Assembly (NCBI GenBank): GCA_963693305.1
Contig: OY855903.1
Coordinates: 24,270,455-24,334,454 of the forward strand
Length of the DNA: 64,000 nucleotides
Direction: 5' to 3'
From: Meandrina meandrites
Taxonomy: Eukaryota > Cnidaria > Anthozoa > Scleractinia > Meandrinidae
Below, in pieces: positions 2,351 through 55,083 of this stretch. The position numbers and the translations under genes are program-made. The notes below the pieces were generated by a model. It saw only the letters and a list, made by a program, of their open reading frames with translations, searched no databases and was not told where the DNA came from. How positions within the stretch are numbered: position 1 is the first letter of the stretch; every line of letters starts with the position of its first letter.

Positions 2351-2683
2351 ATGGAAATACCAGTGACACATGTACAGAACGTCTTTCATGGACATATCGT
2401 GTCATGCAAAAGCCCTCGTACAAAACGCAGGTTGAGCAAATCTGAAAGAACACGGCAAAACCAGGAGATGTTTTGCCGAAAAGGTTCCAAAATACTACCC
2501 GATTTTTTCCCGCCTGACAAATAAAAGAAGGAAATTGTCAATCGTCAAATCAGTCTTTCAACCAAAAAGATTAACCTAGTGGAACAGTATTCCTGGGAAA
2601 GTGACGAAAACGGACATTCTGAAGCTCAAACGATCGCTGAATCGTGGATGACGTACTTTGGTCTCGAAGCCTGGGATAATTAG
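2351..2683 (+). pseudogene. FPDFF-box family copy A, one in-frame stop
   Basis: The ATG at 2351 opens a frame of 110 codons ending at TAG 2681-2683, broken once by TAA at 2522-2524 (codon 58). The part before the stop has the basic stretch TKRRLSKSERTRQNQE, then MFCRKGSKILPDFFPPD. The part after the stop stays in frame and keeps the family tail (YSWES, SEAQTIAESWMTYFGLE). No frameshift is needed, so the gene is either recently inactivated, read through at the stop, or makes a 57-residue protein without its tail. Function unknown. The family assignment is firm from the many residues shared with copies B-D. Confidence 0.85.
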
Positions 2684-4730
2684 TACTTCTTAGGGACTGA
2701 GTGTATACCATAACTGAAAGAAAATCGTCTGCTAAGGACTTATAGACATTGTTTTTACCCAACATAAACAAAACAAATTCACGCAATGTATGTTAATCTT
2801 GAAGAATTGTAATATAGTTTTCTTGCTTGTACTTTAAAGGTTCATATTATAGGCTGTATAAATTTTCTTGCTGCCACGTCCATGCTGTTATTCAGATTTC
2901 AGAGAGTGTATTGAAAACAATTTATTTCTTGGCCGGAACTACACAGATTTTGACATTAATTTAACAGATAATCTTACATCTACTTAGATAAAATATCTTT
3001 TTTGGGCAAAATCATTATCAGTTCTTTAATTTAACCCTATAGGATTGCACCACAAGAATGTCCTTTTAAAAACGAAAATAACTATATATGTGAATAATAA
3101 TTAGGGAATCAGATTTTGATACGTTATTTCTGTATATTAAAATAAAAAGTAAACATATGGAAATCTCATAGAAACGATAATATTAAGCGCGCTTGTCAGT
3201 AAATATTAAATGTATCCTTAGTAACAAAACCGAATTTTCCTATATTTTGTGTCGTGGTTTTTTGTTGATTCTTTTGAACAGTTTCAGTGAGTTTATTTTA
3301 TTTTATTTTTTTTTTCAGAAAATCTTGCTAAGTTTGATTAAAAGATCAGAAGATCGAGAAAAATTAAATATATTACATGCCAGTTCAGTATGACGACAAC
3401 TTGTTTTCATTTTTAACACACCGGGTGACTAGACATGAAAATGATTCAACACAAAAGTCATCCGTGGCCATATGTTTTGTGACGAATATTCTTATGCCTA
3501 TTAGGATTTTAGCTACAATGTTGAATTCTGCTTGTTTGGGACATTGTTATAGCATCATTTCTTCCACTGCAGTACGTTGTCCTTTGGGAATCTAACGTAA
3601 ATAAGCTACATACTCTATGAATGGTGGTTCCGTGCTGGTTTGTTTTGTTTGTCTTTGGACTAGAGATATCGCGTGGTTACTTTGGGTTGTGATTATGAAA
3701 TGACGACTCGGCTATCAGCATCATAAAAAGAGATAATTTTAAGTGACTTTTAAAAACGATTTCCGTTACTGGATCGGTTATCCCGGAACATTCACTTTCA
3801 ATTTTACTTCTGATCCATTTATGCGATCCCTATGTTCTCTCGGGCCTTGTTTATTTTGAGGTTCTGTTCTTAGGAACCCGTAGTAATTCTGTAGTATTTT
3901 TTTTTGAAAGGAAAATGAAACTGAAAATAAACAAGCTTCGAATTCATGGTTCTGATGTTCTCTTTTATTACATCTTGCACATAATTTTCACCCGATAGCT
4001 ATTTTACAATGAGGGTCAAAACCACCTCACTGTCTTTGCAAAAACTCCTAAAATAAAATAATTTATACACTTTCTAATAAGAATGGCAGAATGGAAAGGA
4101 CCATGTTATAGAAGATCAAGGCTACGAAGAATTGGTAGAGGCCACGAAAACTATTTCATAAACCGGTAGCTGTTGGTAGTCTTCTGTTTTACATCATTTA
4201 ACACCCACAGAGCTATTTGGACCACAGATGGCTAACGCTGTTTATTGATTGGGTTGCAACAATAGATCCTGCTTGTTCAGTTTATTAAAGAAAAATTACA
4301 GAAGCCTTATGACGATCTACTTTTCGACTTTTAAAAACAATAAAAAACAGCTTCGTCGTTAAGTCACGTCCAAAGTTTCATCATGCAAGACTTCATGCTG
4401 TGAGTGAAGACAAAGCCATCAAAACCATTCGCGATTACACGCCACAGTAGTGTAAGATGACATGAAGCAATTATGTATTGCGTTCAGTATTTAAAGTCGC
4501 GATTTCTCTTGAAAGCAACACTACTAAAGAAATGTTAGAATATATACCACTCGTTGGAGAGTTTGCAGTCAGATCTCGAGTGACCGAGTGAAGTCATTGG
4601 CTCATTTGAGTTTCCCAGGTGGCAGTATTCTATCAATTCTATTCTCTCAAACGAACGTAACGAAACAGCATGAAAGACGTAACGTTATGCGTATTTATTT
4701 ATTCATGCAGTCATTTACGATTTCTCACTT
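2684..4730. other. 3' flank of copy A and intergenic DNA
   Basis: The first part is a 3' flank. A stretch near 2930-2990 (ATTTATTTCTTGGCCGG and following) recurs downstream of copy D near 9985, so the flank was duplicated with the gene. A polyadenylation-like AATAAA lies near 3141-3146. No further gene is supported up to the promoter of copy B. Confidence 0.45.
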
Positions 4731-4732
4731 TC

Positions 4733-4766
4733 AGCCAATGAGATCGAATCGCTACATGTTTAAATA
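4733..4766 (+). promoter_or_regulatory. Putative promoter of copy B
   Basis: CAGCCAATGAGATCGAATC is followed about 10 bases later by ATGTTTAAATAC, a CCAAT box plus TATA-like pair. The same block recurs upstream of copy C (near 5993-6022) and copy D (near 8870-8900). It sits about 235 bases upstream of the ATG of B. Conservation between duplicates may reflect recent shared descent as much as function. Confidence 0.4.
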
Positions 4767-5000
4767 CAAGCAGAATCAAATATGAAAATAGTTTGTGTTA
4801 AAGGTTGTATAAGACTACGCGTCTGTTACATTTATCGTAAAGTTTTGGGCATTTGGTATTGGTAGTTATACCTGAAACATCATTTGAGTAAGGGAACCAC
4901 ACCTGGAGATTTGTTGTACATCAAGCGACTGGCAATCAACAGGCAAATGACGGGAAACAAAGACAACACTCTATTTCAAGGAAACGAAGAGTTAAAAGAT

Positions 5001-5327
5001 ATGGAAACGTCGTCAACACAGAAAGTGTTCTATGGTCATTCAGTGCCAGCTAACAGCTCATGAGGCAAACACAGGTTAAGCAAATCTGAGCGTACTCGGA
5101 AGAGCCGAGAGATGTTCTGTCGAAAAGGTTCCAGAATACTTCCAGACTTTTTCCCGCCTGACGCGACAACGACGAAAATACTTAATGATCAAAACATTCT
5201 TTCTGTCAAAAGTACGAGTATGGCGAAGCAATATTCCTGGGAAAACGAACAAGACGGAGAATCTGAAGCTCAAGTGATTGCTGAATCATGGATGATGTAC
5301 TTTGGCCTCGAGGCCAACAATAGTTGA
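5001..5327 (+). pseudogene. FPDFF-box family copy B, early nonsense codon
   Basis: The family frame starts at ATG 5001 (METSSTQKVFYGHSV) and reaches TGA 5325-5327, but codon 21 is TGA (5061-5063) where copy C has CGA. This looks like a CpG-type C-to-T change. An in-frame ATG at 5112 (MFCRKGSRILPDFFPPD) leaves a 71-residue open frame that keeps the core and the tail (SEAQVIAESWMMYFGLE). A short protein could therefore still be made by reinitiation or leaky scanning. Apart from the stop it is the most complete of the A-D group. Function unknown. Confidence 0.85.
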
Positions 5328-5992
5328 TGTTGTTTAGAGACTGAATAGATGCCATATTTGTGTTCACACGAGTGCATGCATGATTTCAGTTTCTATTAAA
5401 TACAACAAAGGAAATGGTCAACTAGGAGAAAAGTGTAATTTTGATGTTACATTACATTTTTACAAGAAACGTTAAGGAAATAGAAGTGTAAAGATAAAAA
5501 TATGGTATAAGTTTTTTACTGATTTGGCCCTGCTCATTTGTCGGTAACGGTACAGGTATTTGAAATTTTGTTTCCAGATTTCCCAGTCTCCCGGCGATAG
5601 CAAACTAGATTTCGACGTAACGGGAACAGTAATAGCTTTCAACTTGGCGATATAACCACAAGATATTCTCTCGTCATAAAACGGAACATTTGATATATGG
5701 AGAAGACGATACTTATTCTAAAGACTGCTTTTCATTTTTTTGAGGGCCCACAACTTTCTCCCCAGTAATGGATAATAAAAAAATACACCTATTCTCGATA
5801 CTTAGTAGCCCAGGCCCTCTGGGCCTTACACGCACTTTTGATAGCGTGACTTTCGTCGAAAATGTTTGGGCTGCGAAGTAATGTTCATCCGCTTAAACGC
5901 CGATTCATTCTCCAAACCCTTTTGCTGAATTGCCATTTGCTAAGTTTCACGTTCATTATAAGTAAAGATACATTTACGGTTTCTCACTTCCG
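5328..5992. other. 3' flank of B running into the duplicated 5' block of C
   Basis: The first ~130 bases match the 3' flank of copy D, so 3' flanks were duplicated along with the genes. From about 5590 to 5960 the sequence matches the block upstream of copy D (about 8485-8860) and again about 13905-14115: all share a GGGAACAGTAATA word or its relative, GGCCCTCTGG, and TTTGGGCTGCG. No coding potential is apparent. Confidence 0.55.
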
Positions 5993-6249: not shown

Positions 6250-6534
6250 ATGGAAATGTCGTCAGCACAGACAGTGTTCTATGATCATTCAGTGCCATCT
6301 AACAGCTCACGAGGCAAACACAGATTAAGTGCATCTGAGCGAAGTCGGAAGAGCCGAGAGATGTTTTGTCGAAAAGGTTCCAAAATACTTCCAGACGTTT
6401 TCCCGCCAACGAGGAAAATACTTAATGACAAAAACATTCTTCTTGTCAAAAACTTAAATTTACTAAAAAGCAACGTTGAAAACAATCTAGTTTCCATGAT
6501 TGAAGCCGGACTCATCATTTACTGCAAAGTGTAA
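6250..6534 (+). CDS. FPDFF-box family copy C, family tail replaced
   Basis: An intact frame of 94 residues starts at a true ATG (MEMSSAQTVFYDHSVPS) that aligns with the start of copy B. It has the basic segment GKHRLSASERSRKSRE and MFCRKGSKILPDVFPP at about residues 38-53. The core phenylalanine is changed to valine (PDVFPP). After KNILLVKN (about residue 68) the family sequence stops and 26 unrelated residues follow. The DNA encoding these also occurs, non-coding, at 10335-10400. The SWMMYFG tail is therefore lost, probably by a deletion that fused the gene to downstream DNA. It may be a pseudogene with a fortuitously open end. Function unknown. Confidence 0.7.
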   Translation: MEMSSAQTVFYDHSVPSNSSRGKHRLSASERSRKSREMFCRKGSKILPDVFPPTRKILNDKNILLVKNLNLLKSNVENNLVSMIEAGLIIYCKV

Positions 6535-6700
6535 ACTTAATATCGATATTTTTTCGTACAAAACGTCATAGCATTTGAACAATGGAGCAGCTGAAATATT
6601 ACGTATAAAAGCAATATAAGAAGAGAATTATTAATTTTGTCAATTTAAACTAATGCCCGTACACGAACAAAGATTTTTGGGTCCGCCAGTTGGGCTTAAT

Positions 6701-6773: not shown

Positions 6774-6807
<34 letters not shown>

Positions 6808-8913: not shown

Positions 8914-9189
8914 ATGGGAAAAGTTAATATAGATAGGTTAAGCAAACCTGAGCGAACAAGGAAGAGCCGAGAGATGTATTGTCGAAAAGGTTCCAAAATA
9001 CTTCCAGACTTTTTCCCGCCTGACGCGCCAACGACGAAAATACTTAATGACAAAAACATTCTTCTTGTCAAAAACACAAGTATGGCGAAGCGATATTCCT
9101 GGGAAAATGAAGGAAACAGAGAATCTGAAGCTCAAATGATTGCTGAATCGTGGATGATGTACTTTGGTCTTGAGACCTACAATGCTTGA
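8914..9189 (+). CDS. FPDFF-box family copy D, N-terminus truncated
   Basis: An intact frame of 91 residues has MYCRKGSKILPDFFPPD at 21-37, then TTKILNDKNILLVKN, YSWEN at 61-65, SEAQMIAESWMMYFGLE at 71-87 and a stop after TYNA. Compared with C, about 260 bases covering the old leader, the start and some 20 codons are missing. The ATG at 8914 comes from what was 5' flank (AATGGGAAAAGTTAATATAGAT matches about 6041-6062). If transcription starts at the normal distance from the TATA-like box, the first usable ATG would be 8974 (codon 21), giving a 71-residue protein like that of copy B. It is the only A-D member with both core and tail in one unbroken frame from an ATG. Function unknown. Confidence 0.75.
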   Translation: MGKVNIDRLSKPERTRKSREMYCRKGSKILPDFFPPDAPTTKILNDKNILLVKNTSMAKRYSWENEGNRESEAQMIAESWMMYFGLETYNA

Positions 9190-16024: not shown

Positions 16025-16495
16025 ATGAAGCAAAATGTTCCGTTTCTACCAAGACTTAAAATGACACGACACCTTAGCACGATCGTGGAAGGGAGAGAAG
16101 AAAACGAAGAGGTCAGTGATGCTAGCGGGCTGCTTGGCAGACCGGGTGAAAATAGACACAAGAGATTCAATCGAAGGGTGCACTCGTGTAGTGACATCCC
16201 TGTAGCTAGGGATAGGAACAAAGAACACGATGCTTTAATTCTTCCTCCGTTGACAAATCCTGAGAAAACTCAGAGACAAACCACATATGGTAGCGTGAAA
16301 GGGCCAAGAGGGAATCAGAAAATGGTTGGCAGTACTGACAATATATTCCCGGATTTTAGACCTCCTGATAGAACTAGGAGTATTATGGACATTAAGGTTT
16401 CGAAATATTCCTCGCGATCAAAATCGAACGCTGAAGACAGTTTTACTCAAAACAAGGAGAACATTGTTGCCTCGTGGCTTCAATTCTTTGGATAA
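16025..16495 (+). CDS. FPDFF-box family copy E, intact, 156 residues
   Basis: A single uninterrupted frame starts at a true ATG, the first after a TATA box. It has the acidic N-terminal box TRHLSTIVEGREENEE (14-29), a basic stretch HKRFNRRVHSCSD (45-57), the core NIFPDFRPPD (106-115), a KEN tripeptide at 144-146 and the terminal tail ASWLQFFG (149-156). The tail resembles copy J (NWMQFFG) and copies A-D (ESWMMYFG). No signal peptide or membrane segment is visible; the sequence is rich in charged and polar residues and looks largely disordered, so an intracellular protein is likely. It is an isolated, intact copy 7 kb from the damaged A-D group. Function unknown; I do not recognise the family. 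Confidence 0.8.
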   Translation: MKQNVPFLPRLKMTRHLSTIVEGREENEEVSDASGLLGRPGENRHKRFNRRVHSCSDIPVARDRNKEHDALILPPLTNPEKTQRQTTYGSVKGPRGNQKMVGSTDNIFPDFRPPDRTRSIMDIKVSKYSSRSKSNAEDSFTQNKENIVASWLQFFG

Positions 16496-20091: not shown

Positions 20092-20361
20092 CTATTTTAT
20101 CCCAAATTCACTCTTGTACCAGTCTTCAATGCCACGTGGGCTATTTTCGGTTTCACCCTCACTGATCGTTCTTTCACGCTGAACGTTCTTGTGGCGTATG
20201 TCACACGGGTGAAAGAAATCTGGAAAAATTGCCATGGCACTTGTTAAATCATCACCATCAAAACTGTTCTGCACTGAATTCTTTAAACTTTCTGATGTTT
20301 TTGAGAAGAAAGACGCAGAAACAGCATCGGGTGTAGACGGCGCTTTGACGTATCTATTCAT
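20092..20361 (-). CDS. FPDFF-box family copy F, intact, 89 residues
   Basis: A short uninterrupted frame starts at a true ATG (complement of 20359-20361). It contains DDLTSAMAIFPDFFHP (37-52), the family core in its - strand form with an aspartate and an alanine before it, as in G, H and I. It ends DWYKSEFGIK (80-89), matching EWVRKEYGM of copy G. The middle is polar. A TATA-like GATATATAAG (complement of 20452-20461) predicts a start near 20425, and no ATG lies between that and 20361, which supports the chosen start. It is the smallest complete member. Function unknown. Confidence 0.7.
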   Translation of the reverse strand: MNRYVKAPSTPDAVSASFFSKTSESLKNSVQNSFDGDDLTSAMAIFPDFFHPCDIRHKNVQRERTISEGETENSPRGIEDWYKSEFGIK

Positions 20362-21795: not shown

Positions 21796-23212
21796 AAGTT
21801 AGTTAGTTAGTTCTCTTCACGCCATGAGGCGCATAAGGCTGTAACTGTCTCTCGACAACTAGCCCTGTCTTGCGCTGCGCCCCTGACTTCCGACCAGCTG
21901 GACCATCTCTTTTGCCTGGATTCTTTTGCCACTGTCCTTCTCCATGTGGTTTTGGGTCGTCCCACTTTTCTCTTCCCTTCAGGTTGCCACTCCATTGCCA
22001 CTATGCAGTCATCATTCCTCTCCTTTCTGAGCACGTGGCCAATCCGATTCCATCTTCTCCTTCGGATTTCATCGCTGATCTTCTTTACGCCTGTTATTTG
22101 TGAAATTGTGTCGTTTCGGATGCGTTGCGGCCACCAAATTCTTAGAATCCGTCTCAGGCACATGAACTGAAATCTATCCAGTTTCTTCTCCTCAGCAGCT
22201 GTTAGTTTCCATGCTTCGCACCCATACAAAAGAACTGGTCGTACTAAGGTCTTAAACAGTTTGATTTTTGTATTCCGACCAATGCTCCGTGTGTTCCAGA
22301 TGTTCATCAAGTTGAAAAATGCTCCTTGCGCCTTACTTAGATGTTTCTTGATGTCTTCTGTGCCACCACCCTCTTTTGTCACAGTCGCACCCAGATATAC
22401 AAACTCTTCGACGTCTTCTACTTCCTCTCTTCCAATCATTACTTTGTCTTCTCTTCGTGAATTCATTCTCATAACTTTGCATTTTTGAGCATTCAGTTTC
22501 AGGCCAACTCTTCCTGCGTTATCTACCAGTCGGTTGGTCTTGTTCTGTACGTGTTCGTATTTTGATGAAATTAGGACTATATCGTCAGCAAAGTCGAGGT
22601 CTTCAAGTGTACTTGTGAAATTCCATCTGATGCCATTTCTATGGGTTTCTGTTGTTCTGCGCATTGTCCAGTCAACAGTAAGCAGGAACAGGAAGCCTGA
22701 CATGACGCATCCTTGTTTAACGCCAGTGGTGATCTTAAACCATCTTGTTTGCTCTCCCTCGTCCAGTACAGAACACTCAAAGTCGTCATACATGATCTTC
22801 ACCATTGTTATCAGCTTGTCAGGGATGCCATAGGCTTTCATGATTCTCCACAGTCCTTCGCGGTGTACAGAGTCGAAAGCTTTTTCGAAGTCGACAGAGT
22901 GTGCATAGAATGTTGCCTGCCACTCATTGACCTGTTCTATGATGTTACGGAGGATGAATATTTGATCGACTGTGCTCTTATTCTTTCGAAATCCAGCTTG
23001 TTCTTTTCTGAGTACATGATCTACTCCGTTTTGTATTCTCTCAATGATGACTCTCCCCATTACTTTGCTTGCCACAGGTAACAATGTCACACCACGCCAA
23101 TTCTTGCACTCTTTCAAATCTCCTCGTTTTGGTATTTTCACTATCAAGCCTTTCTTCCATTGGTCAGGTACACAAGGTATAGGCAAATTCTCACGTGCAG
23201 CCATTTTGTAAA
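21796..23212 (-). CDS. LINE reverse transcriptase, 5'-truncated
   Basis: The open frame runs from 23204 down to 21807 (465 residues). It covers most of a non-LTR reverse transcriptase: VDFEKAFDSV (104-113, palm aspartate), TTGVKQGC (159-166), LDFADDIVL (203-211, an FADD form of the YADD box), then VYLGATVTKEG, and C-terminal RRRRWNRIGHVLR and GRPKTTWRR. The endonuclease and everything upstream of the finger region are missing, so it is a dead 5'-truncated copy. The sequence ends in a short TAAC repeat (21796-21810) typical of LINE 3' tails. The domain style resembles RTE-type or related clades; the clade is inference. The ATG at 23204 is simply the first within the truncated frame. Confidence 0.9.
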
Positions 23213-23703: not shown

Positions 23704-24485
23704 TTTTCAACACAAAAATAAGCGAAATTAACAAACAACGTTTCGACATCTTCAAGATGTCATTGTCAAGTTAAATAAATTAGTTAGTTCATGCGTTATA
23801 TAAATATGCGATGTACAAATTATGCTGAAAAGGTGTTACAAGTGAAAAGCCACACCATTAGCCATGATGAAAGTGTTTTCACCCGAATCGTACTACCGTT
23901 CAAAGATCAAAAATCAGCTGACATCGTCAGAAGACAGCTAAGAGACTTGAGCATTAAAATTGGAAAAACCCTTCAACCGGTCTTCATTAGTAGAAAAATT
24001 GAGAATGATGTTAAGATCCAAGAGAAAAAGCCTCCATTAATCAACCAACAAAGCGTTGTTTATCGATTCAAATGTGGCTTGTGCGATGCAAGCTATGTCG
24101 GCTTCACACGCCGACACTTATATCAACGCGTGGCTGAACACCAGAGCTCAACTATCGGGAACCATCTAAAGACCGAACACAATATCGAGCCTAGGAATCT
24201 TGAGGACAGGTTTACCATCCTAAGGAAATGCAAGACGAAACTTGACTGCCTGATATACGAAAGGCTGTATATCAGAGATCTCAAACCAAATCTTAACACC
24301 CAATCAGACTCGATCCGAGCAAAACTATTTTGCAATTCACACGTTTCTTTGACTTTTCACTTGTAACACCTTTTCAGCATAATTTGTACATCGCATATTT
24401 ATATAACGCATGAACTAACTAATTTATTTACCTGAAGATGTCGAAACGTTGTTTGTTAATTTCGCTTATTTTTGTGTTGAAAATA
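23704..24485 (+). mobile_element. Truncated Penelope-like element with inverted arms
   Basis: Two arms are reverse complements of each other: 23704-23849 and 24352-24485, both including ATGCGTTATATAAATATGCG (or its complement) and AACAAACAACGTTTCGACAT. They enclose the 3' part of a Penelope-like element. Inverted partial copies are a known feature of such elements. The left arm carries about 13 bases (around CAATGACAT) missing from the right arm. The right arm reads CCTGAAGATGTCGAAACG. The flanking DNA is strongly AT-rich (AATTATTATAAT words). Confidence 0.8.
23791..24366 (+). CDS. Penelope-like element, GIY-YIG endonuclease end
   Basis: A frame of 191 residues. Residues 1-22 come from the inverted arm and are probably not original coding sequence. 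From about residue 30 (TRIVLPFKDQKSADIVRRQL) it matches the thumb/linker end of Penelope-like reverse transcriptases. A GIY-YIG domain follows: VVYRFKC (89-95) with CGLC (95-98), SYVGFTRRHLYQRVAEH (101-117), GNHLKTEH (123-130), LIYERLYIRDLKPNLN (154-169). The expected catalytic tyrosines, arginine, glutamate and asparagine are present. The reverse transcriptase proper is absent, so the copy cannot move by itself. Such elements insert by target-primed reverse transcription. Confidence 0.85.
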   Translation: MRYINMRCTNYAEKVLQVKSHTISHDESVFTRIVLPFKDQKSADIVRRQLRDLSIKIGKTLQPVFISRKIENDVKIQEKKPPLINQQSVVYRFKCGLCDASYVGFTRRHLYQRVAEHQSSTIGNHLKTEHNIEPRNLEDRFTILRKCKTKLDCLIYERLYIRDLKPNLNTQSDSIRAKLFCNSHVSLTFHL

Positions 24486-25863: not shown

Positions 25864-26268
25864 CTACATTCCATACTCCTTCCTTACCCACTCAACAATG
25901 TCTTTAGAATTCTTAAGGTGTTCTGTAAATTTATGATTTGCTCCACTGTTAGGGAAAAAGCCTTCCTTGGTGTTCATCTGCCTCTTTTCGTTGTCACACA
26001 AAGATCCTGGTCGCCAGTCTTTGTAGGTATCTTGCAAAAGAAATTCTGGAAAGAGTGTCAAAGCCATATTAAAGTCTTTGCTATTTGAAGAAGGGTCGTG
26101 GGCGTTTTGCTTATCGTCTGAGGGATGCGAACGGGTAGTTACGTTGTTGGTGGAAGTTTGGAGATAGGTGTCGTCTTGCTTACTTGTGTCCGTTTCCAAA
26201 GCAAGTGGCTTCCTGTATGTTGTCTGTGTCTCGCTTGAGCATTTAGAACATGCCTGGGTTTGGCTCAT
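25864..26268 (-). CDS. FPDFF-box family copy G, intact but divergent, 134 residues
   Basis: An uninterrupted frame from a true ATG (complement of 26266-26268). The N-terminal half is Ser/Thr/Asn/Gln-rich and looks disordered. KDFNMALTLFPEFLLQDTYKD (64-84) is the family core in the form shared with F, H and I, with glutamate for the usual aspartate and leucine for the second phenylalanine. It ends DIVEWVRKEYGM (123-134), equivalent to the tail of copy F. No signal peptide or membrane segment. A possible TATA-like TTTTAAAA lies at about 26405 on the - strand. It is the most diverged core in the set, so membership rests on core plus tail together. Function unknown. Confidence 0.65.
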   Translation of the reverse strand: MSQTQACSKCSSETQTTYRKPLALETDTSKQDDTYLQTSTNNVTTRSHPSDDKQNAHDPSSNSKDFNMALTLFPEFLLQDTYKDWRPGSLCDNEKRQMNTKEGFFPNSGANHKFTEHLKNSKDIVEWVRKEYGM

Positions 26269-29844: not shown

Positions 29845-30378
29845 TTAGTTGTCAGTCAAGACTTCATGTCCTGAAAATATCTGTTCCAGTGTTGGGTGCA
29901 CTCGCAAGTAGTCATAACTGTCCTGCACTAGCTGGCGTGGGAAGAAGTCTGGAAAAAAAGCTTTGGCTGCAGTTATGTCTTTTTCTTTCCTTGTCTGCAA
30001 ATATGAGTTTCTTGTATTATTCTCCAGCAGCTCACGAGGAGAGTCATTCGAGACATAGACATTTTTGGCAAAATTATTTTGCACAGGGTTTTGAGTCTTC
30101 AAAACACTTCCGTTCCCCACCCTACTAGGGAGAGGTTTGACTCTAGCTTTTCCTGCATTGCCGTCATCCCCACTGGAATATTTTTGTGTGATCGCGAAAC
30201 TGCCTTGCTGCTGCAGGAGTAATTCGTTTGGGGTTTCTTCGTGCAAAGTACTTAACACTTTCCTTGCAGTCCTTCTTCTTTCCAGATGGGTTATCGCCAG
30301 CTTCTTATCCATAAACGCTTTCGATCTTCTATGTATATTGCCTACTCCATTGTTACATTCTTCAGGTGTCTGGTTCAT
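29845..30378 (-). CDS. FPDFF-box family copy H, intact, 177 residues
   Basis: The frame is open upstream to 30414 but only at a GTG directly after a stop. The first ATG is the complement of 30376-30378 (MNQTPEECNNG). A TATA box (GCTTTATAAAC, complement of about 30445-30455) predicts a start near 30420, so this ATG is the first in the transcript. Features: TARKVLSTLHEETPNE (37-52), the acidic N-terminal box also seen in E, I and J; DITAAKAFFPDFFPR (134-148), the core; HPTLEQIFSG (161-170), shared with copy I in place of the W-aromatic-G tail. Rich in Asn, Lys and Arg; no signal peptide. Intronless as far as can be seen. Function unknown. Confidence 0.75.
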   Translation of the reverse strand: MNQTPEECNNGVGNIHRRSKAFMDKKLAITHLERRRTARKVLSTLHEETPNELLLQQQGSFAITQKYSSGDDGNAGKARVKPLPSRVGNGSVLKTQNPVQNNFAKNVYVSNDSPRELLENNTRNSYLQTRKEKDITAAKAFFPDFFPRQLVQDSYDYLRVHPTLEQIFSGHEVLTDN

Positions 30379-32376: not shown

Positions 32377-32919
32377 CTAAAAAGATAACTGATATATTTT
32401 CCAGTATTCAAAGTTCGTATCATGATGCAGTCCGGATTTCACTGAAAGCAGAGCATTGTGTTGTCCTGAAAATATCTCTTCCATTGTTGGTCTTGCTTTC
32501 CACGAGCTTTCTTCACAAGTCTCCTGTAATGCTACTTGTGGAAAGAAATCAGGAAAAAGAACTTTCGCTTCATTCATATCTTTCTGCTTCTCAGTCTGAA
32601 CAAATAGCTTTGGCATTCTCTGTTGATGCTCTGCACACAGAGGGCATCGATCATCTGTAAATGTGTCGTCGAGATGGCGGAATAAGACAGTTTTTCTTTC
32701 AGTTTCTTGGCACTGCATAACTCCTTTATTCCGTGTGGTTGAATGACTGCACTTGTCAATAGATGTCTTTAGTTGGATTATTTTTGCTTCATTTTCTTCA
32801 GTTTTTACAAGTCTTTTCTGTAAAGGTGCATCTTCCACTTCTTCTGATATAGTAGGCAACAAATGCCGTACGGGTTTTTTGCCACCATGTAAACAGCTTA
32901 TAATTAGTTGTTTTTCCAT
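32377..32919 (-). CDS. FPDFF-box family copy I, intact, 180 residues
   Basis: The frame extends to 32955 only through a GTG after an in-frame stop. The first ATG is the complement of 32917-32919 (MEKQLIISCLHGGKK), and a TATA box (TATAAA, complement of 33024-33029) about 105 bases upstream has no intervening ATG. Features: VRHLLPTISEEVED (17-30), the acidic N-terminal box; DDRCPLCAEH (89-98), a CxxC pair not seen in relatives; DMNEAKVLFPDFFPQ (113-127), the core; RPTMEEIFSG (143-152), shared with H. After that comes an extra 28-residue end. H and I are 2.5 kb apart, on the same strand, and are clearly sister copies despite low overall identity. Function unknown. Confidence 0.75.
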   Translation of the reverse strand: MEKQLIISCLHGGKKPVRHLLPTISEEVEDAPLQKRLVKTEENEAKIIQLKTSIDKCSHSTTRNKGVMQCQETERKTVLFRHLDDTFTDDRCPLCAEHQQRMPKLFVQTEKQKDMNEAKVLFPDFFPQVALQETCEESSWKARPTMEEIFSGQHNALLSVKSGLHHDTNFEYWKIYQLSF

Positions 32920-40509: not shown

Positions 40510-41112
40510 ATGACAATCTATCGTCAGGAGGGAAGCCGAGGCGCCAAGAGAAACCCAAGAAGCGCAAAATTTCCTTCACTTTCAAGAAAGAGAAATTCTT
40601 TGAAAAGTTTGCCGCCAATTTACGAGATCGACGAAGAGTGCGAAGAAACTTCCTTTTCAGATGCCAAAGACAAGCAAAATCTTCAAGCAGGAAGATTAGG
40701 AAATATTTGTCATGACTATAAGGACAAATGCTTTCAACAAAACGCCAATCTACCTAATGAAGAACGTTGGGAGGGAAACAAAACGTGCAAACAGCAGCAG
40801 AAATATCGGGAGTTTCCCGCAGAAGACAAAAAGGAGACTTGCGGTTATCTTAAGCGAAATCTTGGGCGCAATTCATCTGTTACCTCGCACGCCGAAGGAA
40901 ACAATCAGATGGTGTTTCCAGACTTTTTTCCTCCGGGGATGCACGTTCACTGCGCGCAAAACGCACTTCCAGAAGCCAGCAAAGGACTGTATATGAAAAT
41001 TATGCAAGGTGAGGCTGAGATGATGCACGATAAGAATGTCTGCAAAACGAACAAGGCAACGAGCAATAATTCCAGTACTAAACAGCAGAATTGGATGCAG
41101 TTTTTTGGTTAG
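40510..41112 (+). CDS. FPDFF-box family copy J, intact, 200 residues
   Basis: The longest member: one open frame from a true ATG (40510) to TAG 41110-41112. Features: a basic N-terminus (GSRGAKRNPRSAKFPSLSRK), the box NSLKSLPPIYEIDEECEE (29-46) related to the acidic box of E, H and I, a long polar middle rich in Lys, Asn and Gln, the core NQMVFPDFFPP (132-142), and the terminal tail QNWMQFFG (193-200) like copy E. No signal peptide, membrane segment or known domain. A polyadenylation signal AATAAA at 41209-41214 gives a short 3' end of about 100 bases, supporting a compact intronless gene. Function unknown. Confidence 0.8.
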   Translation: MTIYRQEGSRGAKRNPRSAKFPSLSRKRNSLKSLPPIYEIDEECEETSFSDAKDKQNLQAGRLGNICHDYKDKCFQQNANLPNEERWEGNKTCKQQQKYREFPAEDKKETCGYLKRNLGRNSSVTSHAEGNNQMVFPDFFPPGMHVHCAQNALPEASKGLYMKIMQGEAEMMHDKNVCKTNKATSNNSSTKQQNWMQFFG

Positions 41113-47600: not shown

Positions 47601-50600
47601 CCTCCTCTCGAGGTATTTCCCGCACTCCACATTGCTGAGGGCAATCAAGCGGAAAGCGTGGGCAATTGGTTCGGTGAATCTGTTGATTTCAATAAAACAT
47701 AAAGTTTGCGCGACAGTTTTCCAAATATATTTCCCATATTTGATTGTTTCGTTGAATGACAAATTGCAAACACACGACACGTATCATGTGGAAAAGAAGC
47801 CAAGCTGTTCCAGCTGTTCGTGGGAGCAGCACGAAAATCTGGATTACCACAAAGAACGCCCGTGCCCTTAATTTTTGCTCGTTGTTTTTCGCGCTGCCTG
47901 GAACATAAATTTCATGCAACAATTTTGAAATATAATCAGGGTAAGGCAAACGCTGCAATTCAGTTGCAACGTTAAGGTGTCACGGTCTCAATGCAGTTTT
48001 TATCTGGACCATACCTAACATTTTCAATTGGCCGTTTAGCAGACTTTCCGGACTCGGATCGATGTGAAATTAACACCAGATAAAGGAAGTGAAAAATTTA
48101 CCAAAAATTGCAATGGTAGTACCGTATGAAAACAAAGAATTTTCGGGATCGCGATAACGAAAATCAACAAAACTTTCACGGCGACGAAAGGTAAGTTAAA
48201 TACATACTTTGGCGTTATTTCGAAGTAGTTTCATCAACGCATTGTCAGCGTCTCGATCCACTTATCATTATCATTAAAAAGTATGGTTATATTTGCGATT
48301 AATTTGAAATCAAACATACAGAATTTTCTTATTAAAGAAGTAAAAAACGCGTCCGAGTGCATTGTTGAGTTATATAAGCACGCGGGAATTTTTAAGAACA
48401 CGAAGTGCATAGAATAGAGAAGCACCAGGCGCAGCAGAGTGCTTCTCCAACTTCTCAAGTATTCGTAAAAATTCCCAAGTGATTATATAACTCAGCAATG
48501 TACGAGGAGCAAGTTTTTTTATTTCTTTCGCTCAAACTCGTAACGTAAGCTGCGTGCATTATAACTGTGTTAGTGTTTTACGTCAAATCTGATTCGCGTA
48601 GAATTTAAGGTTAACTGATTTCTTGTTTTTCTGTTTAATGCTGCCATGAGAATGATGATTTTGCTAAAACATATATTACATCAATCCTCAATCCAAGTCC
48701 AATAACTGGTGTAAATCTCACAGCGATCCCTGTCCGCAAAGTCTGCTAAACGGCCAATTGAAAATGTTAGGTATGGTCCAGAAAAAACTGTATTGAGACA
48801 CCTTAACGGGTCGTTAACGTTGCACTGTGTCCGCCCCTTAAGGCTCTTTCAAGATACGACCGAGGAATGACACAACAGTTCTTTTATGAAAAGGGTGGCA
48901 GACAGTGTCAGGTTAGCATATGAAACATAAACACTCATGAGCACCACCGTCAACTTTTGTGCTGTCTCGAGAGTCATCCCATGCATCTGAGTGTCCATGT
49001 AGGGTGAACGTACATGAATACATGTACTGCTGGTCTGAAAAACCGCCGATCTTACACATGGTTCGTAAATATTGAGTAACCTCACCTCTGTGCACCGGAA
49101 AATAAATCTCCTTTCACAGTGTTCACATTGCACAATCCTGTCGAGACATTCTGAAGTTTTGTGTCGGTGCAAGAACCTTCGTTCCATACCTTCGTAACAG
49201 TCAGCACAAGCTTCATCTTCATATTGGCACATTTTGAAGTGTTCCTGGGAAAGAAAACACCAGTAGTTACTTCCCTCTTGCAACTCACATAGCATCCATA
49301 CCTGAGCTAGGCGGCGGTTTTTATCAACAATGAATGACAAAAGCGACGTAGCTAGCTGAAACGCCTTTCTAACGGCTTCTTTGATATAAAATATACGATA
49401 CACCAAAGACACGTGGCTTCATATAAAACAAGTTACCTCATAATCACGTAGTTGCTCAGTCCAGTTACATCCTCGTTCACTCCTCTTGCACTTGACGCGA
49501 AGAGAAAGTATCTCCCTCTCCCAGGCCACATCACTAAAGAACTGCGACAGGAATAAAATTTTATAACGACCTTCAGTAGGATTTCTGGGATGGATATTAA
49601 AGAACAACGGTACAACTGCAAAAGCTGGTATATAACCTGAAGTGTGTACCATTAGAAATGTGAAGGGCGGGAGGGGGGGGGGGGGGGGGGGGTAGGACTT
49701 TTCTTGAAAGGTATGTTATTTTTTTCACAACCAGCAGGAGTGCAAGAATTTTTTTTCAACCTTCAAAACCTTGCAAGATTTCCTTTGTTCAAAATGACTA
49801 CATATGCTGAAAAAAGACCAATGCTCAGTGACAGCCTTCAATTGTGATTTCACTTTGCTACCATATGCCTGTGGCCTATATAAAACGGCTATGTTAGATT
49901 ACGTTTTTATTAGCATGCAAAATTTATATTTGAAGGTTTTGCAAACTGAAGCACTCAGAATATTTTGTGTTAGTTTGAGTGAATAATATTCTTAATAGTT
50001 TCAAATACACTGTGATCTGCAATGTGATTGGTATTTCTGGGACATCTACTTTAGTTCATAGTTGTAAATACGTATTGTAAACCACCACCAACTCCATTAA
50101 CGTGTGTATGTTGTGGTTTACTTTTATATTTGGTTTAACTATTTCAAACCAGTTTGATTTTCATATTTCATTGTCTCATATTCATTATCACAATCAGAAA
50201 CAAAGGAAAATACAAATCAAACTGGTTTGAAAAATTTTAACCAAAGATAATGGGAAGCCATAAAGATCAAGAAGAGCATCAGAGTTGGTTCAAATTGAAA
50301 TCCCTAGTACCCTACGTACTGAAATTGTTTATGTAAAATGAGATGACTAAAATGGAGTTTAGGATGAATTAAGAAATTGGAGGAAAGGGCTTTCCTGTTG
50401 CAGATCACTGGTTTGTATATACATGTTGTGGTTCAATCTTATCCTTGGTTCAAATTTTATTTTCCTTTGTTTCGGGGTATGGTAATGTATGATAATGAGT
50501 TTAAAACAAAGGAAAATAAAATTTGAACCAAGGATAAAATTGAACCACAACATATACACAGTCACACTGGTTATCCATGGTTCCTTTACAATGCAGGATT

Positions 50601-51972
50601 TTTTTCTTAATTTTTTTTGCAGTATTCTTTTTGTTTTTGGACTCACCCCTCCCCCTCTTCACATTTCTAATGGTACACCCCTTCAAATTTCTTCCATATG
50701 TTCCTATTATGAAATCATGTAGCAGTGACTGTTCTTCCATTATAGTATCAAGCAGCCATGAATTCGTTTGTTCCCCCAAGAGCTGCAGCCAATACAATTC
50801 TCAAAACCTTGTGCAACGTACAAGTCAAGGTTGTTCCAATAAAACTTGATTGGCAATATGATTATACTACTTGAAAGTCCCCCATTTCTGTCATTGATTA
50901 CCCTGAAAGGGGTATACTGTATGCAAAATTCAGACATTTCAATTCAAATGCTGCAGATGTAAACAAAATGTTTGGTAATCGGTAATAGTTACACTGGGTG
51001 CCAGAGGGTTTTTTCTTTTTTGCAGAAGGAAGGACTATCTTTAGGGCTATCTTCATGCTCTACATACAGTTGAAGATAGCCCGGGTTTTAGCCTGTGTGC
51101 TGACTGCTGCATGCAGGGTACACGGGTTTAAAAGCAAAATTTACAGGTAGGAATTACCATTCTGCTGGACGTCACGCTTTCAAATTTTACAAGCTAAAAC
51201 AAATACTTCAGCAACAGAAGAATCATAATGACCAAAACCGATTTCGCTTCATTGTGCAGTTTATCACCCTAATCTGTTTTTCAGCCTGTTCCAATCCTAA
51301 AAATCAGACACTAATTTTTCTTAGTCTGATACCCGTTTGACAGAAAAAGTGTAAATTATTTAAAGTGACAAACATCCGTTTGAAATCGTCACGCAATGCT
51401 TCCTACCTCCATCTCTCAGCGTGGAGAAGCGTTGCGTGACGATCATAATGATGGCTGCGAAGAAGACCAACACACATAAGGATCCCTCCTAGTTCAATAA
51501 TTATTTATGATTTTGTTCAGCTCATGTTAGTTAGAACTTACTCCTCCATCTTCAGGAATATGATTTCTATCTTGTGGACAACGGTTGCCTCGCCTGAAGG
51601 GAAATAAATCACAAATTCAACGTTATGATTCGCATGTATGTTAGACCCTGACAATTTAACGTTCAAACATATGTGTTCAATAACTCAGTATTCAATGCGA
51701 ATACATCATGTTTGGACATACTGCATTTTCGTTTTGATTACCATTGTTAGAACTGAACATTTCACTGTTGACAGATTTTTAGGAGAACCGAACGCCAAGA
51801 TGTGAAGCATACAACACCTGATTGCCTTCAACAAGCATGTTTCGCAAAAGCGATGACCACACATAGTCTGCACTGGGTTCCGCATGGCAAGGAAACAAAT
51901 GGAGCAAGCTTGGCATGGAAGCAACTCGTCTACAAACTCAAAATCATAGCCTGCAGCTTCTTCCTCCATCAT
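44262..51972 (-). CDS. TRAF-like signalling adaptor, six exons, 3' end not found
   Basis: Six exons join with consistent phases: 51972-51818, 51593-51542, 49541-49437, 49244-49086, 44964-44887 and 44680-44262. They give about 322 residues: a C3HC3D RING (C23, C26, C38, H40, C43, C46, C57, D60), TRAF-type zinc fingers (about 87-205) and a long Lys/Glu-rich coiled coil (about 200-290). TRAF proteins pass signals from TNF-receptor and Toll/IL-1 type receptors to NF-kB and JNK pathways in the cytoplasm, often as ubiquitin ligases. The start is the first ATG of an MM pair; the longer frame begins with GTG. The last exon ends in phase 2 with CAG/gtaaga, so at least one more exon follows, but no MATH domain is visible down to 41 kb. 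It may be a truncated or MATH-less member, or the MATH exon may lie elsewhere. The exon model is inferred by eye. Confidence 0.85.
44887..44964 (-). CDS. TRAF-like exon 5: zinc finger
   Basis: 78 bases, phase 0, acceptor ccttttgcag, donor TTTCAT/gtaagt. In the correct frame it reads VETHVENDCLLTMVACPYKE then AGCIFH. Joined to exon 4 this continues the C-x-x-C ... H ... C ... V-x-C ... GC pattern. A different frame gives the longer but spurious open frame at this place. Confidence 0.85.
46770..47290 (-). mobile_element. LINE 3' relic in TRAF-like intron 4
   Basis: On the - strand the sequence encodes a non-LTR retrotransposon C-terminus: RRLRWLGHVCRMQDGRIPKN, GKLASCKRPRGRPQH, a stop (TGA), FKDVCKKALDMD, then after a frame change QWDDLAQDRPRWRQELSRSL and LRLALEELRTRRKNSQQ. 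At least one nonsense change and one frameshift separate these pieces, so it is long dead. It lies inside the fourth intron of the TRAF-like gene, on the same strand. Confidence 0.85.
47411..47562. mobile_element. MITE family a, first copy
   Basis: Own inverted ends: TTGCTCCTCGTGCGTTGTTG then GAGTTATATAAG at the left, CATATAACTCAACAATGCAC then TCGGACGCG at the right. A second copy in opposite orientation is at 48340-48525. About 60 bases of left flank (CGGCTTACGTTATGAGTTTG) are also shared, inverted, with 48526-48556. Confidence 0.7.
47965..48830. mobile_element. Inverted-repeat element b, interrupted by MITE a
   Basis: The left arm (about 47970-48085) carries GTTAAGGTGT and CATTTTCAATTGGCCGTTTA; the right arm (about 48700-48806) is its reverse complement. 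The element contains the second, inverted copy of MITE a (48340-48525). Non-coding. Lies in intron 4 of the TRAF-like gene. Confidence 0.7.
48340..48525. mobile_element. MITE family a, second copy, inverted
   Basis: Begins AAACGCGTCCGAGTGCATTG and ends ATGTACGAGGAGCAAG, the reverse orientation of 47411-47562. Its middle differs (a CTTCTCCAACTTCTC stretch), so it is an independent insertion, inside element b. Confidence 0.7.
49086..49244 (-). CDS. TRAF-like exon 4: zinc fingers
   Basis: 159 bases, phase 0, acceptor ctttcccag, donor ACAGAG/gtgagg. It encodes EHFKMCQYEDEACADCYEGM, then RHKTSECLDRIVQCEHCERR and FIFRCTE: alternating Cys and His in TRAF-type spacing. Confidence 0.9.
49437..49541 (-). 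CDS. TRAF-like exon 3: linker and first zinc finger strand
   Basis: 105 bases, phase 0 at both ends, acceptor ctgtcgcag, donor TATGAG/gtaact. It encodes FFSDVAWEREILSLRVKC followed by RGCNWTEQLRDYE, the classical RING-to-zinc-finger transition of TRAF proteins (REILSL-x-V-x-C, GC-x-W). Confidence 0.9.
49673..49692 (+). repeat. G homopolymer, 20 bases
   Basis: An uninterrupted G run in intron 2 of the TRAF-like gene, C-rich on the coding strand. Such runs are prone to length change and to assembly or read error. Confidence 0.9.
50110..50252. mobile_element. Decayed MITE, GTGGTT family
   Basis: TGGTTTAACTATTTCAAACC and its loose complement (GGTTTGAAAAATTTTAACCA) form a fold-back of about 140 bases that starts with GTTGTGGTTTA. 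It resembles the better preserved element at 50425-50551. In TRAF-like intron 2. Confidence 0.6.
50425..50551. mobile_element. MITE, GTGGTT family, well preserved
   Basis: Arms of about 50 bases: the left starts GTTGTGGTTCAATCTTATCC and the right ends GGATAAAATTGAACCACAAC. They are nearly perfect complements around a loop of about 25 bases. In TRAF-like intron 2. Confidence 0.8.
51542..51593 (-). CDS. TRAF-like exon 2: RING, last part
   Basis: A 52-base exon between acceptor ccttcag and donor GGAGGA/gtaagt. It reads RGNRCPQDRNHIPEDGG after the split arginine codon, supplying the last cysteine and the aspartate ligand (CPQD) of a TRAF-type RING. Too short for a frame scan to reveal. Confidence 0.85.
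51818..51972 (-). CDS. TRAF-like exon 1: RING, first part
   Basis: Encodes MMEEEAAGYDFEFVDELLP, then CSICFLAMRNPVQTMCGHRF and CETCLLKAI. The donor AATCAG/gtgttg is weak at position +4 but is required by the phase-2 join to the next exon, which restores the end of the RING. The exon extends upstream as leader. Confidence 0.85.
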
Positions 51973-52940: not shown

Positions 52941-53338
52941 GTAAGGCCCAGTTCAGAAGTCGTGCTTCTGCCGTGCCGAACTAAATTCAGGAATTAAGTT
53001 CGCGGCAGAAGTACGGCATCTGAATCAAACTTAAAATTAAGTTCGGCAAAGCAATTAAGCTCGACAAGCTCTGCCGTGCTACACGACTCTGGCACGGCAG
53101 CGATTCAAACGTCGCGCTTCTGCCGTGCCAAACAAAATTCATAAATTATATTAAATGTATTTTGCGGGGGTAGTTACGGCGCCATTTTTGTTTGATCAAC
53201 GCTGACTAATTGTTACGTGACTTTAGTAAGTCCTGAATTTGGCACGACGTCTGCATCAGAGTCGTGTTTGTGCCGTGCTACAGTCGAACCTATTACAATT
53301 AAGTTCGGCACGGCAGAAGCACGACGTCTGAACTGGGC
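52941..53338. mobile_element. hAT-like MITE with 8-base target duplication
   Basis: TTTTAAAG flanks the element on both sides (52933-52940 and 53339-53346). The ends are inverted: GGCCCAGTTCAGAAGTCGTG at the left, and the right reads GCACGACGTCTGAACTGGGC. The interior repeats words such as TTCTGCCGTGCC in both orientations. About 398 bases, non-coding. The 8-base duplication suggests hAT. Confidence 0.8.
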
Positions 53339-53417
53339 TTTTAAAGTCCATTTGGATAATTTTCTCAAGCCAGCCGCCTCGCCTAATAATAATTTTCTGA
53401 GCGTTTTTTTTTTTGTG

Positions 53418-53723
53418 GGAGGCGCGGTGGCCTAATGGTTAGTGTGCTGGATCGGGCGGTCCGGGCTCGAGCCCTGGCCGGGGCACTGCGTTGTGTTCTT
53501 GGGCAAGATACTGTACTCTCATAGTGCCTCTCTCCACCCAGGTGTATAAATGGGTACCGGCAAATTTACTGCTGGGGGTAACCCTGCGATGGACTAGCAT
53601 CCCGTCCAGGGGGGAGTAATAATACTCCTAGTCGCTTCATGCTACGGAAACCGGGATAAACTCCGGCCTGATGGGTCCCTAGGCTCGCGTATACAGACTT
53701 TACCTTTTTTTACCTTTTTTTTT
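53418..53723 (+). mobile_element. tRNA-derived SINE
   Basis: The head reads GCGGTGGCCTAATGGTTAGT (pol III A-box-like) and GGTCCGGGCTCGAGCCCTGG (B-box-like). A body follows with TGGGTACCGGCAAATTTACT and TAGTCGCTTCATGCTACGGA, and a tail of TTTACCTTTTTT repeats. This is the layout of a tRNA-derived SINE, about 300 bases long. An old body fragment of the same family lies at 42523-42652. Confidence 0.85.
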
Positions 53724-54942
53724 GCGTTTTCGCGCGCTAAGAGTTATAGGTAAATGTACGTGACATCTTTTAGACTACAGTGGATTGAAAACCCTTTTAC
53801 GGACAGTCTCGTATGTAGCTATAGCATAACTGTGACGATGAGGCACTAGCAAATAAACATATTTCAGATATACATATTTCATTAAAGAAGTCATTATAGG
53901 CAGGAACGATCAACCAGTTTGTCCAAACGATCAGCACGAAATTCAAGCGGATGGTGGTGTAGGTATTATAAAGGCCTGCATCACGTGCTAATTGAACCAC
54001 TAGTATTAGTTAGACTTGGGACTCATATCCAGGTAGTGGATATTTTGCGAGCCACCGAGTACGGCAGTGATCTCTGCTTTACATCATCTTGGTATAACCA
54101 GACTCCAGGTGTCTTGCTTCAGTCTCCTTGTCAGCCTCGTTAGGCTTTAAGATTCTTCTACACTACTCTCAGGATCGTAACGAGGTCATGTGAGATCATA
54201 GATCAGAGTCCAGGCATCGGGATCACAGCGATAGGATCAGGGAACAAAGATGAAATCCGGGATCAAAACATCATTTTGAAGGTCAGTAGTTGCTGACTAC
54301 CAAAAGGTAAGGAAGGTCACGTTATAATTAATGGTAGTGACCACTGGTTACTGTTTTGTAGTCTTTTTGAGATGATATCTATTTGATCATCATATCGATC
54401 GGGTATCGCCTGCCTCCTTCGAAGGCGTTGCTTCTTGGTCGTGTGCGGTGTGCTTTGTGTTATGGGAATGATATGGCGTTGTGGGATCGCTCTCTAACCA
54501 TCTACCCCCACGCTTCCTGTTTCATCGCCTTTCCCAACTGGTCGACCTGCAACTGGGGACGCGGCAGGGGTATCGCCATCTTCGAGAGTGACTACGTTGC
54601 GATCTTCGATCTCAGATCTCAAGAAAGGAAACACCATAATCACCAGTAAGTGTTTATTAAGCCGAGCTATTGCTCTTATTTAAAATAGATGTAGTTTTGG
54701 AAAAAATATTATTCGATATTACTATGAAGTGCTTCTATTGATGCCCACTTGGAGGTTATCCCGGTATTGGTAGCACGAGGCGACTGAATTGCTACTTCCG
54801 TTGGATGGGATGCCAGACCACTGCAGGTTTTTGTTTTTGTTCCTTGAGCCATAAACATATTCCATAAACTTATTCTTTCTGAATAAAGACTAAGGGCAGC
54901 AGGACCGCTAAACATCGTCATCTAAGAAAGTTCCGTAGCCAT
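53724..54942. other. Intergenic, no gene supported
   Basis: Near 54410-54470 there is a stretch (GCTTCTTGGTCGTGTGCGGT, then TTGTGTTATGGGAATGATAT) loosely like 55960-56010, suggesting a small local duplication. No gene can be supported. Confidence 0.4.
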
Positions 54943-55083
54943 ATGGTGTCATCTAACATAGCTCGTGAAAAACGCAGATTTACAATAGAGCCCACGCGAA
55001 AGAGCCGGGCGAAGATGTTTTGGCGGAAAGGTCCTAAAATACTTCCAGATTTGGGAGATAGAGAGAGGGGTCTGGCTACCTGA
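54943..55083 (+). pseudogene. FPDFF-box family relic K
   Basis: An ATG at 54943 opens 46 codons: MVSSNIAREKRRFTIEPTRK then SRAKMFWRKGPKILPDLGD. SSNxxR, KRRF/KHRL, TRKSR, MF-x-RKG-x-KILPD are shared with copies A-D in the same order, but the match ends inside the core (PDLGD for PDFFP) and the tail is gone. It is 14 kb from copy J and beyond the TRAF-like gene, so the family once reached further right or a fragment was moved. A truncated relic; no function expected. Confidence 0.75.

What the first reader, a model, noticed from the sequence alone, without database searches (positions are those of the whole stretch)
2351..55083. An apparently undescribed cluster of small intronless genes sharing an [FL]PDFF core
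Seen directly: ten short frames and one relic share a core around [FL]-P-[DE]-F-[FLR], and most share a C-terminal W-aromatic-G tail, while the rest of the proteins is almost unalignable (56-200 residues). Core and tail have been kept in E-J while everything else drifted, the pattern of a real family under selection on short linear motifs. I cannot match it to any named family. The proteins are charged and polar, with no signal peptide, and look disordered, so an adaptor or docking-peptide role is my inference.
Basis: partly seen in the sequence, partly recalled or inferred. Interest (0 to 1): 0.92.

Follow-up and report, generated by a model that had tools for sequence, protein, structure and literature searches.

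The report
Coral gene cluster with phosphatase-docking motifs
Stony corals carry a tight cluster of small, fast-changing genes whose probably floppy proteins keep up to three short conserved motifs, one of which matches the known docking signal for the phosphatase PP2A-B56, so the cluster may be a coral-specific set of switches on a central signalling enzyme.

Summary
The ten core-bearing frames and the relic are there, and the array continues upstream: about 22 copies (16 with intact frames) over roughly 125 kb of one chromosome. Of 168 homologous proteins found, 163 are not identical to window frames; the only two with an organism name are stony corals ('hypothetical protein'). No Pfam family matches. 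Core and tail are conserved islands; dN/dS is below 1 in four usable paralogue pairs, lower over the motifs.

Eight of 16 intact members carry LxxIxE near the N-terminus and a ninth (H) the weaker LSTLHE, all with K/R-rich upstream and acidic downstream flanks: the published docking motif of PP2A-B56. Orthologues keep it (E 16 of 16, I 32 of 35, J 34 of 35). The same genome encodes B56 with the contact residues I could check. Low-confidence AlphaFold models fit disorder.

Best explanation: a coral family of disordered PP2A-B56 docking regulators, with core and tail holding an unknown second partner; seven intact members lack the docking motif. Binding, partner and expression are untested.

The parts
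2351..2524 (+). copy A: core LPDFF (2495-2509), then in-frame TAA; the same frame continues to a W..FG tail (2645-2662)
5112..5327 (+). copy B: core LPDFF (5139-5153), tail WMMYFG (5289-5306); an in-frame TGA upstream of this ATG cuts off the N-terminal part
6250..6534 (+). copy C: core LPDVF (6388-6402), tail lost
8914..9189 (+). copy D (91 aa): core LPDFF (9001-9015), tail WMMYFG (9151-9168); no LxxIxE
16025..16495 (+). copy E (156 aa): LxxIxE LSTIVE (16073-16090), core FPDFR (16346-16360), C-terminal WLQFFG (16475-16492)
20092..20361 (-). copy F (89 aa): core FPDFF (20212-20226), tail WYKSEFG (20101-20121); no LxxIxE
25864..26268 (-). copy G (134 aa): core FPEFL (26038-26052), tail WVRKEYG (25870-25890); no LxxIxE
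29845..30378 (-). copy H (177 aa): weak B56-type motif LSTLHE (30238-30255), core FPDFF (29941-29955), LEQIFSG; no W..FG tail
32377..32919 (-). copy I (180 aa): LxxIxE LPTISE (32842-32859), core FPDFF (32542-32556), MEEIFSG and C-terminal YWKIYQLSF
40510..41112 (+). copy J (200 aa): LxxIxE LPPIYE (40609-40626), core FPDFF (40915-40929), C-terminal WMQFFG (41092-41109)
54931..55083 (+). relic of an A-D-type copy, diverging just after ILPD
   Evidence: (85% over 41 aa to P0059, E 8e-20)

Best explanation
The array is a stony-coral family of small, single-ORF genes for intrinsically disordered regulators of the phosphatase PP2A-B56. In the full architecture (U2, U3, U6, U7, U8, E, J; I and H with altered or missing tails) a basic stretch plus LxxIxE near the N-terminus docks in the B56 groove. 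The [FLY]P[DE]FF-type core and the C-terminal W-aromatic-G tail hold a shared, still unknown second partner. The protein would bridge B56 to that partner, to dephosphorylate it or to keep B56 from other substrates. Members without the docking motif (A-D type, F, G, U1, U4, U5, U9) would compete for the partner without bringing phosphatase. Shown here: the motifs, their conservation, the array, and a B56 with the checked contact residues in the same genome. Inferred from published motif rules: LxxIxE docking. Inferred from low-confidence models and composition: disorder. Pure inference: the bridging step and the role of core and tail.
For: Strict LxxIxE in 8 of 16 intact members, all in the first 70 aa; 2,000 residue shuffles give a mean of 0.52 (max 4) anywhere and 0.24 (max 3) in the first 70 aa. 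Orthologues meet [LMFI]xx[ILV]xE: E 16 of 16, I 32 of 35, J 34 of 35; in I the P1, P4 and P6 columns are nearly fixed while P3 and P5 vary. All nine motifs, H included, have 3-6 K/R and at most one D/E in the preceding 12-15 residues and 2-5 D/E in the next 8; in orthologues an acidic residue at P2 or P7-9 occurs in 84 of 84 aligned motifs and two or more K/R upstream in 78 of 84. These are the published rules (PMC10970375 passages; PMC7108865 passages; Emi2 LSTLRE binds at 41 uM, cf. LSTLHE in H). Two B56 loci on contig C7; both encode the H187/R188 stretch and the acidic stretch of E310/D313/E316 (E316 is D in one), human gamma numbering. dN/dS 0.24-0.55 in four usable pairs, lower over motifs.
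Against: No binding data; a short motif is never proof. 7 of 16 intact members lack it, so B56 docking cannot be the family's only job. U1 (MKTVLE) and U5 (FCVVEE) match the loose pattern but have neither preferred residue, and I discounted them. One I orthologue reads LPTISK (P0103). Only 12 of 16 E orthologues have two or more K/R upstream. P3 is T or P in all nine and P2 is constant in E, which the B56 rules do not ask for. In E and J the x positions are nearly as fixed as the anchors, so only I shows the anchor pattern cleanly. In the I model the LxxIxE block is no confidence peak. The second partner, expression and location are unknown.
Confidence: 0.6

Rival explanations
1. They are competitors rather than bridges: proteins that occupy the B56 groove and so lift B56 from its usual substrates. 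Core and tail serve stability, localisation or turnover (in U7, U8, E and J the tail ends in a free C-terminal Gly).
For: Small proteins with LxxIxE near the N-terminus and models that fit disorder. Repeated LxxIxE peptides are used as a specific B56 inhibitor (PMC10970375 passage).
Against: Core and tail are about as conserved as LxxIxE and persist in members without it, which suggests they bind something in their own right.
Confidence: 0.22
2. The LxxIxE match is incidental: core and tail define a family of adaptors or a mini-fold with another partner and no link to PP2A-B56.
For: Core and tail are the most widespread features (core in 160 of 163 homologues) and 7 of 16 intact members lack LxxIxE. 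The I model has its best confidence at the core and EEIFSG, with a helix leading into the core.
Against: Eight strict motifs against 0.52 expected, all N-terminal, with the published flanks, kept in 82 of 86 orthologues.
Confidence: 0.13
3. The array is mostly decaying or non-coding sequence, or mobile-element ORFs.
For: A, B, C, U5b and the relic are broken; retroelements and a Polinton-like element lie in and beside the array.
Against: dN/dS below 1 in four pairs; orthologues with the same motifs in other assemblies; D, J and I have no significant match outside the cluster, unlike dispersed elements.
Confidence: 0.03
4. A cnidarian form of vertebrate DEPP1, whose human protein, as I recall it, has an N-terminal LPTIRE and a DPLDWLFG stretch resembling the DPLxxSWLxLFG tail of U2, U3, U4 and U6.
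For: Resemblance of two motifs from memory only.
Against: The Pfam DEPP model gives only one sub-threshold match in the whole genome (E 2.8, another contig), and no member scanned listed it. No [FL]PDFF core in DEPP1 as I recall it.
Confidence: 0.02

Closest known systems
LxxIxE-containing PP2A-B56 ligands (BUBR1, KIF4A, RepoMan, Emi2)
   Same: LxxIxE-type motif; basic patch within about 15 residues N-terminal; acidic residues after it (rules from PMC10970375 and PMC7108865 passages)
   Different: Those belong to unrelated, mostly large proteins (recalled); here the motif sits in small paralogous proteins with two further private motifs, in a coral gene array
IEX-1 (IER3), an early-gene product reported to control B56-PP2A and ERK
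   Same: A small protein acting on B56-PP2A (title of a reference seen in PMC10970375; ERK-B56 gamma link in the listing of PMC3660565)
   Different: No shared sequence is known to me; not compared here. Early-gene behaviour of the coral genes is untested
DEPP1 (Pfam PF15343)
   Same: Recalled only: LxxIxE-like N-terminus and a DPLDWLFG stretch
   Different: Pfam DEPP model finds nothing over cut-off in this genome; no [FL]PDFF core recalled

Membership tests
PP2A-B56 LxxIxE ligands | [LMFI]xx[ILV]xE with Glu at position 6 and at least one of L1 or I4 | tested here: met
   9 of 16 intact members (8 strict plus H); orthologues E 16/16, I 32/35, J 34/35. Not met by D, F, G, U1, U4, U5, U9; among 60 D-type homologues 1 has a strict LxxIxE anywhere
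PP2A-B56 LxxIxE ligands | Acidic or phosphorylatable flank (P2, P7-9) and basic patch N-terminal | tested here: met
   All 9 members; orthologues: acidic 84/84 aligned motifs, two or more K/R upstream E 12/16, I 32/34, J 34/34
PP2A-B56 LxxIxE ligands | A B56 with conserved contact residues in the same organism | tested here: met
   Two loci on C7; H187/R188 and E310/D313/E316 stretches seen, one E316 reads D; E276 and the rest of the pocket not checked
PP2A-B56 LxxIxE ligands | Measured binding to B56 lost on mutating the motif | not testable with these tools
   Needs ITC or pull-down
DEPP (PF15343) | Match to the Pfam model | tested here: not met
   One sub-threshold match, E 2.8, on contig C9; not listed for 14 members
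Any Pfam family | Match over gathering score | tested here: not met
   14 members (B-J and U5-U9; A and U1-U4 not scanned): best E 0.046, below cut-off. 34 J-group proteins: scattered weak hits, best E 0.0076 (DNase_NucA_NucB, 3 of 34), none listed for J itself

The most novel reading that the evidence does not exclude
Stony corals have evolved a private PP2A-B56 control layer: a diversifying array of at least 16 intact disordered regulators that combine a classical B56-docking motif with two undescribed motifs ([FLY]P[DE]FF and W-aromatic-G) for a common partner, with paralogues lacking the docking motif acting as partner-only antagonists.
Probability: 0.45. Interest if true: 0.8.

Novelty: new variant of a known kind. 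Interest (0 to 1): 0.62.

Why it matters
A 'dark' coral gene family is given a testable molecular hypothesis: a named enzyme, a named pocket and single-residue controls. PP2A-B56 acts in ERK signalling and cell division in other animals (listings of PMC3660565, and PMC12357305), so an expanded, fast-evolving set of dedicated regulators in corals would be an unusual case of lineage-specific rewiring of a core phosphatase. It also offers two short linear motifs to match to a partner.

Tried and rejected
Known domain: Pfam gave nothing over cut-off for 14 members and only scattered weak hits in the J group. A PDB sequence search with the J profile listed 4 chance-level hits, best a ribosomal protein uL29 at E 0.37. 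DEPP: rejected. From recalled motif definitions I weighed and dropped AP2 FxDxF, PP4 FxxP, PP1 RVxF, LIR, COP1 VP-type, the YAP omega loop and the p27 LPEFYY element as the meaning of the core or tail: each fails in several members; reasoned by eye, no call. Literature, listings only: FPDFF/LPDFF/PDFFPP/DFFPP anywhere gave 27 papers, the 20 listed unrelated by title; LxxIxE with cnidarian or other terms (2,338 papers hold two of four terms, 15 listed), lineage-specific intronless coral genes (26, 12 listed), LxxIxE inhibitors (35, 12 listed) and coral with B56 (26, 8 listed) showed nothing describing this family. PMC13044578 (novel coral genes) and PMC11361356 (DEPP1) were seen as passages only. 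A promoter test was weak: TATA[AT]A at -150..-40 in 10 of 18 genes against an 11% background, but 6 of 18 in the reversed-orientation control, with the start of U2 mis-set in that run. The DNA pattern for the core was useless genome-wide (1,064 + 1,012 hits). Genome searches with U6 and with E did not complete. No fold search was made because the models are of low confidence. Orthologous DNA from other corals was not available, so dN/dS rests on paralogues.
Full report
What was checked. The core is not chance: 11 of 90 ORFs of 55 aa or more hold [FL]P[DE][FV][FLR] (one of the 11 is an LPDVR in a retroelement ORF), against a mean of 0.13 and a maximum of 2 in 30 dinucleotide shuffles, which held 63 such ORFs on average. 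Core plus tail occurs in 6 ORFs and in none of the shuffles. A and B are interrupted by in-frame stops, C has lost its tail, H has no tail, and I ends in W..YQLSF.

The array is bigger than the window. The window is G000:C1:24270455-24334454 of a 551-Mb genome. With the flanks 274 kb were read. Nine further intact members lie upstream; I call them U1-U9. A profile of the 16 intact members also found U5b, a frame-broken second copy of U5 at about 24228.3-24228.8 kb, and, at E 0.33 only, U0 at 24200.9 kb, which ends in NSWMQFFG but has no recognisable core. Total: about 22 copies over roughly 125 kb (116 kb without U0): 16 with intact frames (U1-U9, D-J), five broken (A, B, C, U5b, relic) and U0. 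Core variants among the 16 include YADFF (U7), FPDFR (E) and FPEFL (G); a W..[FY]G tail is in 14 of 16, missing in H and I. Whole-genome searches with D, J and I gave no significant match outside the cluster; but J found no paralogue at all and I only H, so such single-protein searches would miss distant members elsewhere. Searches with E and U6 did not complete.

Relatives. J, D and an alignment of E-I found 36, 62 and 70 proteins (168 in all). Five are identical to window frames, leaving 163 (two of these, P0099 and P0100, are 99% identical to I and E). The core is present in 160 of 163, and a W..[FY]G tail in 125 of 127 outside the I group, whose 36 members all lack it. The three core misses are FPDFM and FPDFS in two E-type proteins and one J-type protein with a different N-terminal half. 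The two records with an organism name are Desmophyllum pertusum and Oculina patagonica, both Scleractinia, so I read the window as a stony coral; no tool named it.

Selection. In the orthologue groups the motifs are conserved islands (mean majority fraction of motif against rest): E LxxIxE 0.99 vs 0.74, core 0.98 vs 0.75, tail 0.99 vs 0.74; I LxxIxE 0.81 vs 0.58, core 1.00 vs 0.58; J LxxIxE 0.94 vs 0.68, core 0.98 vs 0.68, tail 0.97 vs 0.68; F (5 sequences) core 0.96 and tail 1.00 vs 0.83. They are not the only islands: windows of the same length as high or higher number, for LxxIxE, 6 of 151 (E), 24 of 175 (I) and 20 of 195 (J), and for the core 15 of 152, 2 of 176 and 3 of 196. G is weaker in its tail (0.85 vs 0.72; 27 of 128). 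Nei-Gojobori dN/dS of paralogue pairs: D/U9 0.24, U2/U3 0.55, U1/U4 0.29, H/I 0.39; motif codons against the rest 0 vs 0.27, 0.39 vs 0.56, 0.07 vs 0.42, 0.13 vs 0.44. dS is 0.83-1.78, so the figures are rough; two further pairs (U3/U6, U7/U8) were saturated.

The third motif. E (LSTIVE), I (LPTISE), J (LPPIYE), U2 and U3 (LDTIME), U6 (LNTIME), U7 (LPTIYE) and U8 (LPTIFE) carry strict LxxIxE in the first 70 residues, and H has LSTLHE. Eight of 16 compares with 0.52 expected (max 4) in 2,000 shuffles, or 0.24 (max 3) within the first 70 residues. The published B56 rules are [LMFI]xx[ILV]xE with L preferred at position 1 and I at 4, at least one of them needed, Glu invariant, acidic or phosphorylated residues at positions 2 and 7-9 favourable, and a basic region within about 15 residues N-terminal (passages of PMC10970375, and PMC7108865). 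U1 (MKTVLE) and U5 (FCVVEE) match only the loose pattern with neither preferred residue and are not counted. Among orthologues other than the window's (P0099 and P0100 dropped with the window's own), the rule holds in E 16 of 16, I 32 of 35 and J 34 of 35. The four exceptions are one LPTISK, one different N-terminus and two with no residues there. Two or more K/R in the 15 residues upstream: E 12 of 16, I 32 of 34, J 34 of 34. In the I group P1, P4 and P6 are L 32, I 32 and E 32 of 34, while P3 (T 19, A 14, V 1) and P5 (S 24, A 6, T 3, L 1) vary: the anchor pattern that a B56 ligand predicts. In E and J nearly all six positions are fixed. The D type (60 homologues) has no such N-terminal motif: 14 of its 15 loose matches are the core region itself read as FFPLDE or FFPLVE, and 1 of 60 has a strict LxxIxE anywhere.

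The receptor. The genome holds two B56 loci on contig C7 (PF01603, 14 exon matches, best E 1.4e-18). Translated exon stretches of both contain LHRIYGKF, which on the gamma chain 2npp_B positions is H187/R188; the stretch with E310, D313 and E316 reads NELEEILDVIEP in one locus and GEIEEILDVIDP in the other (one stretch of each kind aligned to PDB chains, the other two read by eye). These are residues that PMC7108865 reports as contacting an acidic residue at position 2 of the ligand and as part of the acidic patch. The rest of the pocket was not checked.

Structure. AlphaFold models are of low confidence, as expected for disorder: J mean pLDDT 51.9, pTM 0.13, with block maxima at residues 31-40 (68), 131-150 (63, 71) and 191-200 (69), where the three motifs lie; I mean 54.8, pTM 0.23, with residues 111-130 around the core at 76-78, 141-150 around EEIFSG at 74 and a helix leading into the core, but no peak at LxxIxE (55).

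Mechanism. I commit to disordered docking regulators of PP2A-B56: LxxIxE in the B56 groove (inference from published rules), core and tail on a shared second partner (inference), paralogues without the motif as partner-only competitors (speculation). The main rival is a plain B56 competitor. A peptide-binding test would separate binding from coincidence at once.

Novelty. No family model over cut-off, no named function, and no paper in the listings or passages seen. The docking motif is known; the family, its array and the two other motifs appear undescribed. Hence a new variant of a known kind.

Noticed in passing
window 21807-23204 (-) and 23791-24366 (+): LINE-like reverse transcriptase ORF (RVT_1 E 3e-35) between F and G, followed by a GIY-YIG fragment (E 4e-7).
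   Followed up: partly
window 59838-63833 (-) and L018 2-1144 (-): Long retroelement polyprotein ORF, BEL/Pao-like by my reading; the adjoining frame in L018 matches DUF1759.
   Followed up: no
window 51706-51972 (-), 48849-49652 (-); L019 8446 (+): TRAF-type RING (TRAF3_RING E 6e-8) beside the cluster, zinc-finger-like frames by eye without a Pfam match, and another RING frame further downstream: possibly a small TRAF-like array.
   Followed up: partly
L016 and L017 (G000:C1, about 24250-24264 kb): Polinton-like element by my reading (ATPase-like and polymerase-like frames) between family members U7 and U8; only noted.
   Followed up: no
window about 59125-59430 (+): Long microsatellite (AGCAGT, then GGTAGT units), seen in the sequence.
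   Followed up: no
C-termini of U7, U8, E and J: These four members end exactly at the tail's Gly (FFG then stop), while the other tailed members run on by 1 to 10 residues; a C-terminal Gly can act as a degron (recalled).
   Followed up: no
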